The translations under genes were made by a program, and so were the position numbers. Shown piece after piece: positions 6,966 through 12,848 of a DNA stretch of 52,695 bases. Numbering within the stretch: position 1 is the first letter of the stretch; each line of letters starts with the position of its first letter. The notes under the pieces are model-generated. The model was not told the origin of the DNA. It worked only from the letters and a program-made list of their open reading frames with translations, and made no database searches. Source of the DNA: an uncultured Hyphomicrobiales bacterium (lineage in GTDB: Bacteria; Pseudomonadota; Alphaproteobacteria; Rhizobiales; Devosiaceae); contig CAIMLX010000072.1 in NCBI GenBank assembly GCA_903842455.1, forward strand, positions 1 to 52,695, read 5' to 3'.

Positions 6966-7295
6966 ATGCTTGTCTGCAGTTGCAATGTGATCACCGATCG
7001 GGAGATCAAGCAGATCATCCTGACGCTGCTCACGGCCGACCCCTGGCAGATCGTCGTGCCCGCCATGGTGTACCGAGAGCTGGAAAAGCGCTTCAAGTGC
7101 GCCGGCTGTGTACCGAATGTGGTGGACTTGATTATCAAGGTGACAGAAGAGTACCACCTCCACATGGCGAATGGCGCTGCAGAGGGACCGGTGGTCTCTC
7201 CGCGGCTTTCTGCCATGCGACGCATTAGAACCGGAGGTCGGCATGAAAGGCGAAGCACAGGTCATCGAGCGACTCAACGAGGCGCTGTTTCTTGA
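6966..7295 (+). CDS. bfd: Bacterioferritin-associated ferredoxin (109 aa)
   Basis: BFD-type [2Fe-2S] protein that delivers electrons to bacterioferritin so that stored Fe(III) is released as Fe(II). Cluster ligands are C-x-C at the N-terminus ([10 protein letters not shown]) and C-x2-C in [10 protein letters not shown], the standard BFD spacing. The start is ATG 6966, well placed for the promoter at 6907-6935. The frame stays open to 7295, 53 bases inside bfr. The last 35 or so residues are Arg-rich and unlike the family, so the tail is either a genuine overlap or the product of a small frameshift after residue 70. Confidence 0.85.
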
Positions 7296-7728
7296 GCTGG
7301 GCGCGGTGAACCAGTACTGGGTGCACTTTCGCATCCTGCAGGACTGGGGCTACTCCAAGCTGGCGGCCAAGGAGCGGGCAGAGTCCATCGAAGAGATGCA
7401 CCACGCCGACAAGCTCATCGAGCGCATCATCTTCCTTGAAGGCCATGCGAACCTGCAGCGCGTCGCGCCGCTCCGCATCGGCCAGACGATCAAGGAAGTG
7501 CTCGAGTGCGACCTCGCCGGCGAGTACGACGCGCGCAAGGCCTACAAGGCCAGCCGCGAGCTCTGCGAGTCGCTTGGCGACTACGTGAGCAAGAACCTGT
7601 TCGAGGAACTGCTGGCGGACGAGGAAGGCCACATCGACTTCCTCGAGAGCCAGCTGCAGCTGCTGAACGCCATTGGCGTCGAGAAGTACGGCCAGCTGAA
7701 CGCGACTTCGGCTGACAAGGCCGAGTAG
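7243..7728 (+). CDS. bfr: Bacterioferritin (161 aa)
   Basis: Heme-containing 24-mer iron storage protein, cytosolic, that oxidises and stores iron. Ferroxidase ligands are all present at the E. coli positions: E18, E51, H54, E94, E127 and H130. M52, the heme ligand at the subunit interface, is also present. The start at 7243 has GGAGG 7 bases upstream. It overlaps the 3' end of bfd by 53 bases in another frame, so the pair is very probably co-transcribed. A strong terminator follows. Confidence 0.96.
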
Positions 7729-8384: not shown

Positions 8385-9458
8385 TCAGTTCACGAACGCG
8401 ATCGCGGTAACGCCGCCGCTTGGGATCGGGGCGCCGAAGCGGGTCAGGCTGCCGTCGGCGCCGATGTGGAACAGGCGGATGTCGTGGCTCTGCTGGTTGC
8501 CGACCGCCAGCACCTTGCCGGATTTGTCGATGTCGAAGTCGCGGGGCCAGTCGCCCTCGGTGGAGGTGGTGTCGACGAACTTGGCGATGCCGTCCGCACC
8601 GATCGCGAAGCGGGTGATGGAGTTGTGGCCGCGGTTGCCGGCGTAGAGGTGCTTGCCGTCGGGCGAGATTTTGAGCGCCGAGCAGTAGCTCGTGACCTCG
8701 GTGCCGGCGGGCAGGGAGGACTCGGTGTGCAGCAGGGTCAGGACGCCGTCGGCGGCGTCGTAGGCAAAGCTGGACACTGACGAGATCAGCTCGTTGACGA
8801 CATAGAAGAACTTGCCATTGGGGTGGAAAACGAGATGGCGGGGGCCGGAGCCGGGCGGCACCTCGGCCTTGCGCTTGAAGGTGATCTTCCCGGCGTCGAA
8901 GCCGTAGATCATGACGCCGTCGAGGCCGAGATCGGCGACGAAGAGGTGGCGGGCATCGGGCGACCAGACGGCGCAGTGGGCGTGCGACCGCTCCTGGCGC
9001 TGCGGGTTGGGGCCGGTGCCGGAGTGCACGGCTTCGCCCGAGACGGGGCCGAGGCCCGACGCGCTGACCGGATACACCGCCGTGCCGCAATCGGGCGGGG
9101 TGCCGGCGGCGAGCGTCGAGTAGTTGGCGATGGCGCCGAAACGGCCGTCGGGCGAGAAGTTGAAGTGGCAGGTGATCGAGCCACGCGTCGCCTGCTTGTT
9201 GAGGTAGGTGAGGGCGCCGGTCGCTTGGTCGATGGCGTAGAGGATGGCGTTGCCCTCGTTCCAGCCGCCGACCTCTTCCACCGCGGCCAGCAGGGTGCCG
9301 TCGGGGGAGACCTTCACGTAGCTCGGGTTCTCGATGCCGGTAATGGTGGCGAGCTGCTCGGCGGCACCGGTTTGGCTGTCGACCGACCAAGCTTCGATGC
9401 CCTTGCCGGGGTCGCCGCCGCGGTTGTTGCTGCCGGTGTACATGAGGAGCTTAGCCAA
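8385..9458 (-). CDS. Lactonase, 6-phosphogluconolactonase (YbhE/Pgl) type (357 aa)
   Basis: Seven-bladed beta-propeller lactonase that hydrolyses a sugar lactone, classically 6-phosphoglucono-1,5-lactone. Family marks are the N-terminal YTGSNN strand, repeated VSPDG/FSPDG/ISPDG/FHPNG blade starts, the SHAHCAVWSPD segment, GPRHLVFHPNGKFFYVVNE, and the C-terminal IRLFHIGADGSL blade. The start is a TTG at 9456-9458 preceded by GAGG at 5 bases; the next ATG would cut the first strand. Its last codons are repeated at 7985-8007. Substrate is uncertain: related proteins act on gluconolactones or muconolactones. Confidence 0.88.
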   Translation of the reverse strand: MAKLLMYTGSNNRGGDPGKGIEAWSVDSQTGAAEQLATITGIENPSYVKVSPDGTLLAAVEEVGGWNEGNAILYAIDQATGALTYLNKQATRGSITCHFNFSPDGRFGAIANYSTLAAGTPPDCGTAVYPVSASGLGPVSGEAVHSGTGPNPQRQERSHAHCAVWSPDARHLFVADLGLDGVMIYGFDAGKITFKRKAEVPPGSGPRHLVFHPNGKFFYVVNELISSVSSFAYDAADGVLTLLHTESSLPAGTEVTSYCSALKISPDGKHLYAGNRGHNSITRFAIGADGIAKFVDTTSTEGDWPRDFDIDKSGKVLAVGNQQSHDIRLFHIGADGSLTRFGAPIPSGGVTAIAFVN

Positions 9459-9574
9459 GATAGCCTCGAATAAATGAGTGTGAACAAGCCCGGGTTATGG
9501 GCAGTGGCATTCGCTCACGTCAAGCTAGCCATGCATCCAACGCGGGTTGTGGATTGTCACCGAAGGGTCACACG

Positions 9575-10471
9575 ATGGGCCTCAAGAAATCCGGGGGGAC
9601 TTCGGAAATGGGGCATTCCAAGACGCTCGCGCCGGCGCTGCGCGACCTGTGGCACGTGATCGCCGCCTCGCAGGAGGTGCCGATGGGCGGCCGGCGCGTC
9701 ACGACGCTGTTCGACACCGGCCTTACGGTGTCACGGAATGAGCGGTTGCGGGTGGCGCGCAATGACGATGGCACGCTGTTGCCGGTGATCGAGCGCTATG
9801 GGTGCATCTGGACGAGCTTCGGATCGCCGAGCGCCGACCTGTTCCCGATCCTCGAGTATGGCGAGAGCGACCGGCGGAACATCATTGCCGGATCGATCGG
9901 GGTGAATGTCTCGGCGCCGCGCGCGATCGAAAACTTCCTCGACATGGGCCATTTTCCCTACGTGCACACCGACATCCTCGGGGCGGAGCCGCATACCGAG
10001 GTGAAGGAATATGACGTCGAGATCAGCTTCGAGCGCGACGAGATCTTGGCGACGCGCTGCCGGTTCTTCCAGCCCAAGGCGGCACTGACGGCGACCGAGG
10101 GGCAGGACGTCGATTACATCTACCGCGTGCCGCACCCCTATTGCTCGGTGCTCTACAAGAGCTGCCCGACCGACGAGAGCCGGCTCGACGTGATCGCCAT
10201 CTTCTGCCAGCCGATGACCGAGGAGACGATCCGGGCGCACCTGATGCTGTCGATGATCGATGCTGACAACACCGACGCGGGCATCCGCCGGTTCCAGCAG
10301 ACGATCTTCGGACAGGACCGGCCGATCCTCGAAAACCAGTACCCCAAGCGCCTGCCGCTCGACCCGCGCGCCGAAACACCGATCCGCGCCGACAAGTCGG
10401 CCATCGCCTACCGCCGCTGGCTGAGCCAGAAGGGGGTCAATTACGGCGTGATCCCGCAGCAGCTGAGCTGA
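9575..10471 (+). CDS. Rieske-type oxygenase catalytic subunit lacking the Rieske cluster region (298 aa)
   Basis: Resembles the catalytic domain of vanillate-demethylase-like oxygenases. The mononuclear iron motif N-x2-D-x2-H-x4-H is intact (N120, D123, H126, H131 in IENFLDMGHFPYVH), with a likely third ligand D248 in FGQDRPILENQ. The strands that normally flank the Rieske domain remain (LWHVIAAS near residue 25 and ERYGCIWTSFG near 73). The CxH...CxxH segment expected between them is absent and only about 40 residues fill the gap. Its stop overlaps the next start as TGATG, so the two are translationally coupled. An alternative start is ATG 9608. Catalysis would need an electron donor in trans; the next gene provides a Rieske domain. 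Confidence 0.8.
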   Translation: MGLKKSGGTSEMGHSKTLAPALRDLWHVIAASQEVPMGGRRVTTLFDTGLTVSRNERLRVARNDDGTLLPVIERYGCIWTSFGSPSADLFPILEYGESDRRNIIAGSIGVNVSAPRAIENFLDMGHFPYVHTDILGAEPHTEVKEYDVEISFERDEILATRCRFFQPKAALTATEGQDVDYIYRVPHPYCSVLYKSCPTDESRLDVIAIFCQPMTEETIRAHLMLSMIDADNTDAGIRRFQQTIFGQDRPILENQYPKRLPLDPRAETPIRADKSAIAYRRWLSQKGVNYGVIPQQLS

Positions 10472-12177
10472 TGGGGCTGGGTGTCGCCGAACTCAGGCAG
10501 GCCGCCTGGTATCCTGTCGCCTCGAGCGACGACCTGCCGTTCCGGCACGTCTATCACGGACAGCTGCTGGGGCAGGAACTCGCCATCTGGCGCGCCGACG
10601 ACGGCTACGTGAACATCTGGGAAAACCGCTGCCTGCATCGCGGGGTGCGGCTCTCGATCGGCATCAATGACGGCGCCGAACTGAAGTGCCAGTACCACGG
10701 CTGGCGCTACGCCAACCGGACGGCGGGCTGCACCTATATTCCGGCGCACCCCGCCGATGCGCCGGCCCGACGGATCACCAACCGGACCTATCCGGTCAAG
10801 GAGCGGTTCGGGCTGGTCTGGGCGGCGCTGAGCGCCGATGCGCCGGAGATGGATGTGGCCGAGGCTGGCTTTGCGCTCAGGCCGATGCCGGTGAACGCGC
10901 TGCCGGAGATGGTGCTGTCGGCGCTGGTGGCGCGGGGCGAGGCCGTGACTCAGCTGCCGCCGCTCGGGGCGGCGCTGGTGCTGGCGGGAGCCCCGGGGCG
11001 GGCGACGTATTTCGTGCAGCCGGTGGATTCGGCGCGCGCGGTGATCCGGGGCGTGCTGGACGCCGAGCCGGATGTCGATACGCTGATGGCGTTCAACGCG
11101 GTGCTGGCGAGACTGCGCGACGCGGTCGAAGCGGAGGCGCGGGCGATCGAACTGCCCGATCCGATCGTGCCGCGCTACGAGCCGGTGTCGGTCGAACTGG
11201 CGACCATGCCCGACAGGGTGATCGGGCGGCAGGCCACGGTACGGGTGATGGTGAGGCGGCGCTGGCAGGCGGCGCTCGACGTCACCGGCATCGAACTTGC
11301 GCCGCTGTCGGGGCACCTGCCGACCTTCCAGCCGGGGGCGCATATCGACCTGCATCTGCCCAATGGGCTGGTGCGGCAATATTCGATCACCAACGGGCCG
11401 GGGGACCTCACGGGCTACACCATCGCGGTGAAGCGCGAGGCGGGATCGCGGGGCGGGTCGGCGGCGATCGCCGAAACGCTGCGCGAGGGCGATGTGCTGG
11501 CGGTGTCGGAGCCGCGCAACAACTTTCCGCTCAGGCGTGATGCGGTGCGCACGACGTTCATCGCCGGTGGTATCGGGCTGACGCCGCTGCTCTCGATGGC
11601 GCGGGCGCTGCAGCGGCAGGGGCTGGCGTTCGACTTCCACGCGTTCGCCCGCTCGGCGGAGCATCTGCCGCTCGGGCCGGAACTGGAGGCGCTGGGGGAC
11701 CGGGTCAGCCGGCATTTCGGGCTTGGGCCGCCAGAGACGGCAGAGGCGATCCGGCAGGTGCTTGGGGCGCACAGCTTCGCGCGGCACGTCTATATCTGCG
11801 GGCCAGGGCCGATGCTGGAGCTGGCGCGGGGCATCGCTTCCGAACTGGGCTGGCCGGACGAGGCGGTGCACTACGAGTATTTCAAGAACACCCACGAGAT
11901 CGACACATCGTCGAGTTTTACGGTGGAGCTGGCGCGCTCGGCGCTGAGCCTGACGGTACCGGCGGGCAGGTCGATCCTCGAGGTGATGCGCGAGAACGGC
12001 ATCGAGGCGCCGTCGTCCTGCGAGCAGGGAGCCTGCGGCACCTGCCTGACGCGGGTGCTGGAGGGCGAGATCGACCATCAGGACGTCTACCTCAACGGCA
12101 CGGAAAAGGCGGCCGGCAACGTGATGATGACCTGCGTGTCGCGCGCCAAGTCGGCGCGGCTGGTGCTCGATATCTGA
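10471..12177 (+). CDS. Rieske domain fused to VanB-type reductase (568 aa)
   Basis: Domain order: Rieske [2Fe-2S] domain (about 10-120; ligands C54, H56, C73, H76); a 120-residue middle part resembling a C-terminal oxygenase fragment (YFVQPVDSARAVIRG); a flavin-binding barrel (RQYS at 303-306); an NAD-binding fold (GGIGLTP at 366-372); and a plant-type [2Fe-2S] ferredoxin (C517, C522, C525, C555). A phthalate/vanillate reductase has only the last three parts at about 320 aa. Electrons could pass from NAD(P)H via flavin, ferredoxin and Rieske to the iron of the partner oxygenase. Both gene junctions are TGATG overlaps. The Rieske domain appears to have moved from oxygenase to reductase; this is inference from layout. 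Confidence 0.85.
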   Translation: MGLGVAELRQAAWYPVASSDDLPFRHVYHGQLLGQELAIWRADDGYVNIWENRCLHRGVRLSIGINDGAELKCQYHGWRYANRTAGCTYIPAHPADAPARRITNRTYPVKERFGLVWAALSADAPEMDVAEAGFALRPMPVNALPEMVLSALVARGEAVTQLPPLGAALVLAGAPGRATYFVQPVDSARAVIRGVLDAEPDVDTLMAFNAVLARLRDAVEAEARAIELPDPIVPRYEPVSVELATMPDRVIGRQATVRVMVRRRWQAALDVTGIELAPLSGHLPTFQPGAHIDLHLPNGLVRQYSITNGPGDLTGYTIAVKREAGSRGGSAAIAETLREGDVLAVSEPRNNFPLRRDAVRTTFIAGGIGLTPLLSMARALQRQGLAFDFHAFARSAEHLPLGPELEALGDRVSRHFGLGPPETAEAIRQVLGAHSFARHVYICGPGPMLELARGIASELGWPDEAVHYEYFKNTHEIDTSSSFTVELARSALSLTVPAGRSILEVMRENGIEAPSSCEQGACGTCLTRVLEGEIDHQDVYLNGTEKAAGNVMMTCVSRAKSARLVLDI

Positions 12178-12848
12178 TGGTGACGCTGTACGATTTCGAG
12201 CTCTCGGCGAACTGCTACTCAGTGCGGCTAATGCTAAGCATTCTGGGCGTGCACTACGAAACCGTATCAGTCGACATCTACCCGGGAAGCGACAACCGGA
12301 GCGAGTGGTTCGGAAAGCTCAACCCGGAGGGCACGCTGCCGGTGCTTGTCGACGGCGGGTACATCATCAGCGATGCCAATCCCTGCCTGATCCATCTTGC
12401 CGGCAAGTACGATGACACGGACCGGTGGCATCCCATCCAGGACTGGATGGTCTATCCCCTGATGCTCGGCTGGTTCGACTTCGCGCGGCGGCTCACGGCC
12501 AGCGCAGGCGTGGCGCGGACTGGCGTGGCGTTCGGCTGGAATGCCGACCTGCCAGCGTTGCAGGCCGAGGCGCACCGGCTGCTGCGGCGGCTCGACGAGC
12601 ACCTGTGGTTCGGCGAAAAGCAAGGGCGGGACTGGCTGGTCGCGGGCGAACATCCGACGATCGCCGATATCGCAGTGTTCCCCGACGTGGTGCTGTCGGA
12701 GGAGGGCGGGGTGTCGCGGCAGGACTATCCGGCGGTCCGCCGCTGGCTCGATCGCGTGCGGCGAATCCCGGGTTTCGTGGTGATGAGCGGCGTGTTCCCA
12801 GCCGCTCCGGAGCGCTCGACAGTACCATTGGATCTGCGGCGGTCCTGA
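12177..12848 (+). CDS. Glutathione S-transferase family protein (223 aa)
   Basis: Thioredoxin-fold N-terminal domain (VTLYDFELSANCYSVRLMLSILG, about 1-80) with the cis-proline motif in EGTLPVLVDGG and the ESDA-like SDANPCLIHLA. It is followed by a helical C-terminal domain with the N-capping motif HPTIADIAVFPDV. The start overlaps the previous stop as TGATG, placing it in the split-Rieske operon. GSTs in such operons often conjugate, isomerise or dehalogenate the ring-oxidation product; the actual reaction is not readable here. Confidence 0.88.
   Translation: MVTLYDFELSANCYSVRLMLSILGVHYETVSVDIYPGSDNRSEWFGKLNPEGTLPVLVDGGYIISDANPCLIHLAGKYDDTDRWHPIQDWMVYPLMLGWFDFARRLTASAGVARTGVAFGWNADLPALQAEAHRLLRRLDEHLWFGEKQGRDWLVAGEHPTIADIAVFPDVVLSEEGGVSRQDYPAVRRWLDRVRRIPGFVVMSGVFPAAPERSTVPLDLRRS

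What the first reader, a model, noticed from the sequence alone, without database searches (positions are those of the whole stretch)
9575..12848. Split Rieske oxygenase: Rieske domain moved from oxygenase to reductase
The oxygenase-like protein at 9575-10471 keeps the mononuclear iron motif (N120, D123, H126, H131) and the strands that flank a Rieske domain, yet it has no CxH/CxxH. The next gene starts with a complete Rieske domain (C54, H56, C73, H76), then a partial oxygenase-like segment, flavin, NAD and plant-type ferredoxin domains. TGATG overlaps join all three genes. In known Rieske oxygenases the cluster sits in the catalytic subunit and feeds the iron of the adjacent subunit. Here the electron route would be rewired through the reductase. 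I know of no characterised enzyme with this division.
Basis: partly seen in the sequence, partly recalled or inferred. Interest (0 to 1): 0.85.

Follow-up and report, generated by a model that had tools for sequence, protein, structure and literature searches.

The report
NdmCDE-type split Rieske oxygenase operon
Three overlapping bacterial genes encode an oxygenase whose iron site and iron-sulphur cluster sit in two different proteins, the same unusual layout already known from the caffeine-degrading NdmCDE enzyme; the relatives suggest that it arose from two copies of one enzyme that each lost a different half.

Summary
C (9575-10471) has a mononuclear-iron oxygenase domain and no Rieske motif; D (10471-12177) has a Rieske domain, a short middle segment and a phthalate-dioxygenase-type reductase; E (12177-12848) is GST-like; TGATG overlaps join them. 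The claim that no characterised enzyme has this division is wrong: P. [quoted passage not shown]

The split is no sequencing error. Of 156 ORFs in fetched loci matching C at 160 bits or more, 154 keep the iron motif and 0 have a Rieske motif. In 46 of 46 sampled genomes with C, a Rieske half lies on the same contig, within 8.4 kb.

Beyond the papers I found: D's middle segment is a reduced catalytic domain, and C's N-terminus a Rieske domain without its cluster lobe, so the pair looks like complementary degenerate paralogues. In 30 of those 46 genomes the Rieske half stands alone, unfused. Neighbours in relatives point to methylated purines; the window has none of them near. Activity, complex and cluster-to-iron distance are untested.

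The parts
9575..10471 (+). C: NdmC-like oxygenase subunit without Rieske cluster (298 aa)
   Evidence: Pfam VanA_C 111-285; full-length profile match to intact Rieske oxygenases with a gap where the cluster lobe should be
9632..9814 (+). Remnant Rieske base strands in C (about residues 20-80)
   Evidence: profile alignment with intact oxygenases; matching strands in the model of the Devosia elaeis homologue
9932..9967 (+). Iron-site motif N120-D123-H126-H131
   Evidence: invariant in alignment A1 of 19 sequences
10316..10318 (+). Asp248, presumed third iron ligand
   Evidence: aligned with the D of EDKPVIESQ in NdmA; invariant in A1; ligand role recalled
10469..10473 (+). TGATG overlap of C stop and D start
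10471..12177 (+). D: NdmD-like Rieske-reductase (568 aa)
   Evidence: Pfam and PDB matches; AlphaFold2 mean pLDDT 90.8, pTM 0.88
10507..10755 (+). Rieske domain of D (residues 13-95; C54, H56, C73, H76)
10885..11142 (+). Reduced catalytic (SRPBCC-like) domain in D, residues 139-224, without the iron motif
   Evidence: strand, helix, four strands, long helix in the model; profile match to C 43.5 against at most 17.4 in 60 shuffles
11239..12174 (+). Flavin, NAD and plant-type [2Fe-2S] reductase part of D (residues 257-568)
   Evidence: 2pia E 2.8e-65 over 257-568
12175..12179 (+). TGATG overlap of D stop and E start
12177..12848 (+). E: NdmE-like GST-fold protein (223 aa)
   Evidence: GST_N/GST_C Pfam domains; 44% identical to the GST beside the NdmC/D-like genes of a Klebsiella plasmid

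Best explanation
The three genes encode one enzyme complex of the NdmCDE kind. Electrons would run from NADH to flavin to the plant-type [2Fe-2S] cluster to the Rieske cluster, all in D, and then across the D-C interface to the non-haem iron of C, where O2 is activated; E would be a structural GST-fold subunit that holds C and D together. C and D are two degenerate copies of an ordinary Rieske oxygenase alpha subunit: C lost the cluster lobe, D lost the iron site and shrank, then was fused to a reductase. The likely reaction is mono-oxygenation ending in N-demethylation, most likely of a methylated purine or a similar N-heterocycle. Shown here: domain content, conservation, co-occurrence, remnant domains. 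Taken from the literature on NdmCDE: complex, role of NdmE, electron flow. Inferred: interface, substrate.
For: Domains and motifs. Complementary motifs across homologues (first count). In 46 of 46 genomes of the order that have C at 200 bits or more, a Rieske-half match lies on the same contig, in 41 within 2 kb start to start, in all within 8.4 kb (coordinates typed). In the window's genome PF00355 finds only two Rieske domains, D and one in a 189-aa frame, so D is the only evident donor. D residues 118-256 match C's catalytic C-terminal part, score 43.5 against at most 17.4 in 60 column shuffles, and intact oxygenases, 29.2 against at most 14.9. Foldseek aligns the model of D with GxtA/SxtT at TM 0.50-0.59 of the target, more than the Rieske domain alone would give (inference, aligned ranges are not reported). 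Predicted masses add to 120.2 kDa, 360.6 for 3:3:3, against 360 kDa reported for NdmCDE (PMC10380055, passages). Purine context in relatives: BMP-type ABC transporter genes in 54 of 113 loci, guanine deaminase in 14 loci (representative above NCBIfam cut-off), formaldehyde-detoxifying FrmA in 7 loci (representative above cut-off).
Against: No activity, complex or structure was tested. The window itself has no purine, FrmA or transporter gene beside the operon; its neighbours are a lactonase, a ROK regulator and a sugar-acid dehydratase relative. The ABC transporter representatives score below all NCBIfam cut-offs, best for 'putative B6' models. The window is not closest to NdmCDE: its ferredoxin domain matches CBB5 NdmD in 36 of 86 residues, against 55 of 86 for the Klebsiella plasmid protein, and 7ylr and 2pia score higher than NdmD. 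The one-chain model did not resolve the interface. A first shuffle control gave maxima of 136.4 and 133.9, above the real scores; one search left out gap-rich columns and read the score column differently, so which change removed them is not known.
Confidence: 0.78

Rival explanations
1. Same split complex, but the substrate is not a purine: an O-demethylation or hydroxylation of another aromatic or of a sugar-linked compound, as the local neighbours might suggest.
For: C's only Pfam match is the vanillate O-demethylase C-terminal domain; best PDB matches by sequence are the saxitoxin hydroxylases SxtDIOX/SxtT; neighbours of the window are lactonase, ROK regulator and a galactonate/mannonate dehydratase relative.
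Against: NdmA/NdmB match in the same search; purine genes beside many relatives, and BMP-type genes in 54 of 113 loci; the window's genome holds two guanine deaminases above cut-off, FrmA and four BMP proteins elsewhere.
Confidence: 0.35
2. C receives electrons from another protein and D serves only as reductase or has another partner.
For: NdmD also serves full-length NdmA and NdmB (PMC4408171, passages), so a Rieske-reductase can have more than one partner; 13 of 113 loci have C without D in the fetched stretch, 3 of them at contig ends.
Against: Only two Rieske domains in the window's genome and no second oxygenase match to C there; C and a Rieske half on one contig in 46 of 46 genomes; NdmCDE precedent.
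Confidence: 0.08
3. The operon is decaying or an assembly artefact, C having lost its Rieske domain recently.
For: None found; a broken relative does exist (P. putida pPp1290, D in three annotated ORFs).
Against: The same lack in all 156 ORFs matching C at 160 bits or more; intact overlapping frames.
Confidence: 0.02

Closest known systems
NdmCDE, 7-methylxanthine N7-demethylase of Pseudomonas putida CBB5
   Same: Rieske-less iron oxygenase, reductase with an extra N-terminal Rieske domain, GST-like third protein, adjacent genes (PMC4408171 and PMC10380055, passages).
   Different: The window set is not nearest to it: 47.6, 35.4 and 44.3% identity to the NdmC/D/E-like proteins of a Klebsiella plasmid whose ferredoxin domain matches CBB5 NdmD in 55 of 86 residues; the window has no ndmA/ndmB, purine permease or formaldehyde gene beside it; substrate unknown.
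Stand-alone Rieske-half clusters of Rhizobium and relatives (annotated only as Rieske protein, ring-hydroxylating dioxygenase alpha subunit, GST)
   Same: Same two degenerate halves and GST; R. leguminosarum L154: C 47.6% identity.
   Different: Rieske half of about 190-265 aa not fused to a reductase; order usually D-C-E. No description found.
Micromonas chlorophyllide a oxygenase, found in two chains
   Same: A Rieske oxygenase divided over two polypeptides (PMC9615114, passages).
   Different: Eukaryotic chlorophyll enzyme, no fused reductase, no GST; not compared by sequence here.
Phthalate dioxygenase reductase and other VanB/PDR-type reductases
   Same: Order and sequence of flavin, NAD and ferredoxin domains (2pia).
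   Different: No Rieske domain or oxygenase remnant at the N-terminus.

Membership tests
NdmCDE-type complex | oxygenase subunit with iron site and no Rieske motif | tested here: met
NdmCDE-type complex | reductase with additional N-terminal Rieske domain | tested here: met
NdmCDE-type complex | GST-like third gene next to them | tested here: met
NdmCDE-type complex | single C-D-E gene block | tested here: met
   L151 for comparison
NdmCDE-type complex | 3:3:3 complex; GST needed for solubility and activity | not testable with these tools
   masses agree with 360 kDa, no more
7-methylxanthine N7-demethylase proper | N7-demethylation of 7-methylxanthine | not testable with these tools
   no assay
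7-methylxanthine N7-demethylase proper | nearest kin of the Pseudomonas/Klebsiella NdmC | tested here: not met
   C tree: window with Devosiaceae (100/99); Klebsiella and P. putida C lie with the stand-alone group (95/87); true CBB5 NdmC was not available
7-methylxanthine N7-demethylase proper | ndmA/ndmB, purine permease or formaldehyde genes beside it | tested here: not met
   flanking genes; seven neighbours or nearby genes and nine more distant ORFs scanned, not every ORF of the window
Rieske oxygenase alpha subunit (C alone) | N-terminal Rieske [2Fe-2S] domain | tested here: not met
Rieske oxygenase alpha subunit (C alone) | 2-His-1-Asp iron site in an SRPBCC-type domain | tested here: met
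   motif; homologue model aligned with GxtA/SxtT, TM 0.71-0.75 of target

The most novel reading that the evidence does not exclude
The NdmCDE type is the fused branch of a wider class of heteromeric Rieske oxygenases made of two complementary pseudo-alpha subunits, one keeping only the iron site and the other only the cluster, each with the ruin of the domain it lost, held by a GST-fold scaffold. The unfused form is the commoner one in this order, a single pair of halves can serve two or three different iron subunits, and the class demethylates methylated purines from nucleic-acid turnover or plants rather than only caffeine.
Probability: 0.5. Interest if true: 0.62.

Novelty: new member of a known kind. 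Interest (0 to 1): 0.4.

Why it matters
The electron path of Rieske oxygenases crosses a subunit interface. Here the two partners of that step are on different genes, so each side can be mutated, swapped or counted on its own. The NdmCDE structure was still called unsolved in 2026 (PMC13237722, part 1 of 2 of the text), and the many relatives, including short unfused Rieske halves of about 220 residues, offer smaller or better-behaved systems for it. The purine neighbourhood in relatives gives a testable role for clusters that the 2015 review lists as of unknown function.

Tried and rejected
Frame error hiding a Rieske domain in C: no motif in six frames of 9301-10600. Direct comparison with CBB5 NdmC/NdmE: their sequences were not in the collections used; a Klebsiella plasmid (L151) served as stand-in, and only the ferredoxin domain of CBB5 NdmD (6icm_D) could be compared. 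Co-folding: alignment A3 was dropped because its consensus showed D-only rows aligned on the N-terminus of C; A6 (57 rows, only 22 of them holding both halves) gave pTM 0.60, pLDDT near 40 at the cluster loop, and no coordinates, so the 15 A question stays open. The first count of motifs was partly circular, because ORFs matching both queries had been set aside as intact oxygenases (4: L054, L070, L124, L147) and lengths were filtered; one search repeats it by score alone. The first shuffle control exceeded the real scores; see the Against line. The automatic class count (79 fused, 21 stand-alone, 13 without D) includes two stand-alone cases that are not clean: L080 ends in D, and L110's D frame runs out of the reductase. 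A first 46-to-46 comparison used a hand-picked D cut-off (69.9 bits, next row 69.8), so only the same-contig count is used. Literature absence of the stand-alone form rests in an open-access library only; with six phrases found 0 papers. Summers et al. 2013, Kim et al. 2019 and Kunugi et al. 2013 were not read, only cited in other papers.
Full report
What is there. Three + strand genes overlap by TGATG. C (9575-10471) matches the vanillate O-demethylase C-terminal domain and has the iron motif at residues 120-131 and a QDR at 247; it has no Rieske motif. D (10471-12177) has a Rieske domain at 13-95, then about 140 residues without a Pfam match, then a flavin/NAD/ferredoxin reductase close to phthalate dioxygenase reductase. 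E (12177-12848) is GST-like. By sequence, C's best solved matches are SxtDIOX and SxtT, then NdmA and NdmB.

Known precedent. The review PMC4408171 (passages) describes NdmC, NdmD and NdmE of P. putida CBB5 in the same terms and calls them the first reported case of a Rieske domain split off the oxygenase and fused to the reductase, with 18 further organisms, mostly Sinorhizobium and Mesorhizobium, holding homologous clusters of unknown function. PMC10380055 (passages) gives a 360-kDa 3:3:3 complex, an essential Rieske domain of NdmD for electron transfer to NdmC, and a structural role for NdmE. PMC13237722 (part 1 of 2) says the structure is unsolved. So the division was known; this window holds a new member.

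Conservation. In 297 genomes of the window's order 61 match C at E 0.001 or better and 46 at 200 bits or more; in 398 genomes drawn from the phylum 44 match at E 0.001, 15 of them at 198 bits or more. Counted by score alone, 156 ORFs of the fetched loci match C at 160 bits or more: 154 have the iron motif, 0 a Rieske motif. 106 match D's Rieske half at 100 bits or more: all have the Rieske motif, 0 the iron motif. Just below these scores stands an intact oxygenase (L070, 158 and 98 bits) with both.

Two architectures. In the 46 genomes a Rieske half lies on C's contig in all, within 2 kb in 41 and at most 8.3 kb away in the other five. In 16 it is in an open frame of 550 aa or more, long enough for the fused form, and in 30 in a frame of 400 aa or less, too short for the reductase. 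Fetched examples of the second kind show D-C-E blocks with short overlaps and a Rieske half of about 190-265 aa; a named one is Rhizobium leguminosarum L154, with guanine-deaminase-like amidohydrolase and BMP transporter genes next to it. In two (L054, L068) a reductase gene is near; for the others the electron donor is not known. 27 of 79 fused loci have two or three C genes for one D and one E.

Origin. Profile comparison aligns C with intact oxygenases over the whole length, with the gap just where the cluster-binding lobe would be. The segment of D after the Rieske domain aligns with the last part of C's catalytic domain, QDRPILE matching RLRDAVE, with a score of 43.5 against at most 17.4 in 60 shuffles, and with intact oxygenases at 29.2 against 14.9; an earlier shuffle set had outliers above the real score. 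The window's D folds confidently (pLDDT 90.8, pTM 0.88) and that segment forms strand, helix, four strands and a long helix. Foldseek matches D to GxtA/SxtT at TM 0.50-0.59 of the target; most superpose at 3.7-8 A, five of those listed at about 11 A. In the model of the Devosia elaeis homologue, C's N-terminus has six strands in the same order as D's Rieske base. Both halves therefore contain pieces of both domains, which a simple gene fission or domain transfer would not give. Trees of 60 and 51 rows separate C (100/99) and D (96/89) from 16 intact oxygenases; the nearest intact clade is the same four rows (L070, L155, L156, L157), firmly for C (97/86), weakly for D (46/81). In the D tree stand-alone (98/91) and fused (99/94) forms part, except L110; in the C tree the Klebsiella and P. 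putida proteins side with the stand-alone group (95/87).

Mechanism. The window's genome has two Rieske domains by PF00355, D and a short one, and one match to C. So D is the evident donor. The bridging Asp of the motif, recalled to link the Rieske His of one subunit to the iron His of the next, is kept, as expected if D's cluster docks where a neighbouring subunit's cluster would in a normal trimer. Whether it does was not measured.

Substrate. Relatives sit beside BMP-type ABC transporter genes in 54 of 113 loci, guanine deaminase in 14, a xanthine-dehydrogenase-like subunit in 8, FrmA in 7 (representatives: guanine deaminase and FrmA above cut-off, the others below). With four BMP genes in 4.56 Mb about 1.4% of random 16-kb stretches would hold one (rough estimate). 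The intact relative L070 also lies near a permease of this set. S. meliloti pSymA has the C-C-D-E block next to BMP genes and an aminotransferase, with xanthine-dehydrogenase-like genes further on. The window's genome has two guanine deaminases, FrmA and four BMP genes, none beside the operon. N-demethylation of a methylated purine is the best guess, at about 0.55.

Verdict. Real, functional-looking, and a member of a kind described in 2013. The new content is the spread, the stand-alone form and the sign of complementary degeneration.

Noticed in passing
L038, L041, L077, L096, L102, L105, L107 and others: Two or three C genes in tandem or near one D and one E (27 of 79 fused loci); the upstream copies form their own clade.
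   Followed up: partly
L110:8888-10840: Pseudonocardia dioxanivorans: the D frame leaves the reductase after the oxygenase remnant and runs into unrelated sequence that by eye resembles a urate-pathway OHCU decarboxylase; frameshift or rearrangement.
   Followed up: no
L152:9844-11599: P. putida pPp1290: the NdmD-like gene is annotated as three separate ORFs, beside a full-length oxygenase, hpxO and a nucleobase symporter.
   Followed up: no
L070:4545-5576 and 8843-10102: The intact oxygenase nearest to both halves lies about 3.3 kb from a permease of the BMP-type transporter set.
   Followed up: no
L057, L058, L062, L063, L143, L149 and others: C genes with no Rieske half in the fetched stretch (13 of 113 loci; 3 at contig ends), some beside amidohydrolase and molybdenum-hydroxylase-like genes; they may share a distant D.
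   Followed up: partly
window 7171-7728: Ferritin-like (bacterioferritin-type) protein two genes upstream.
   Followed up: no
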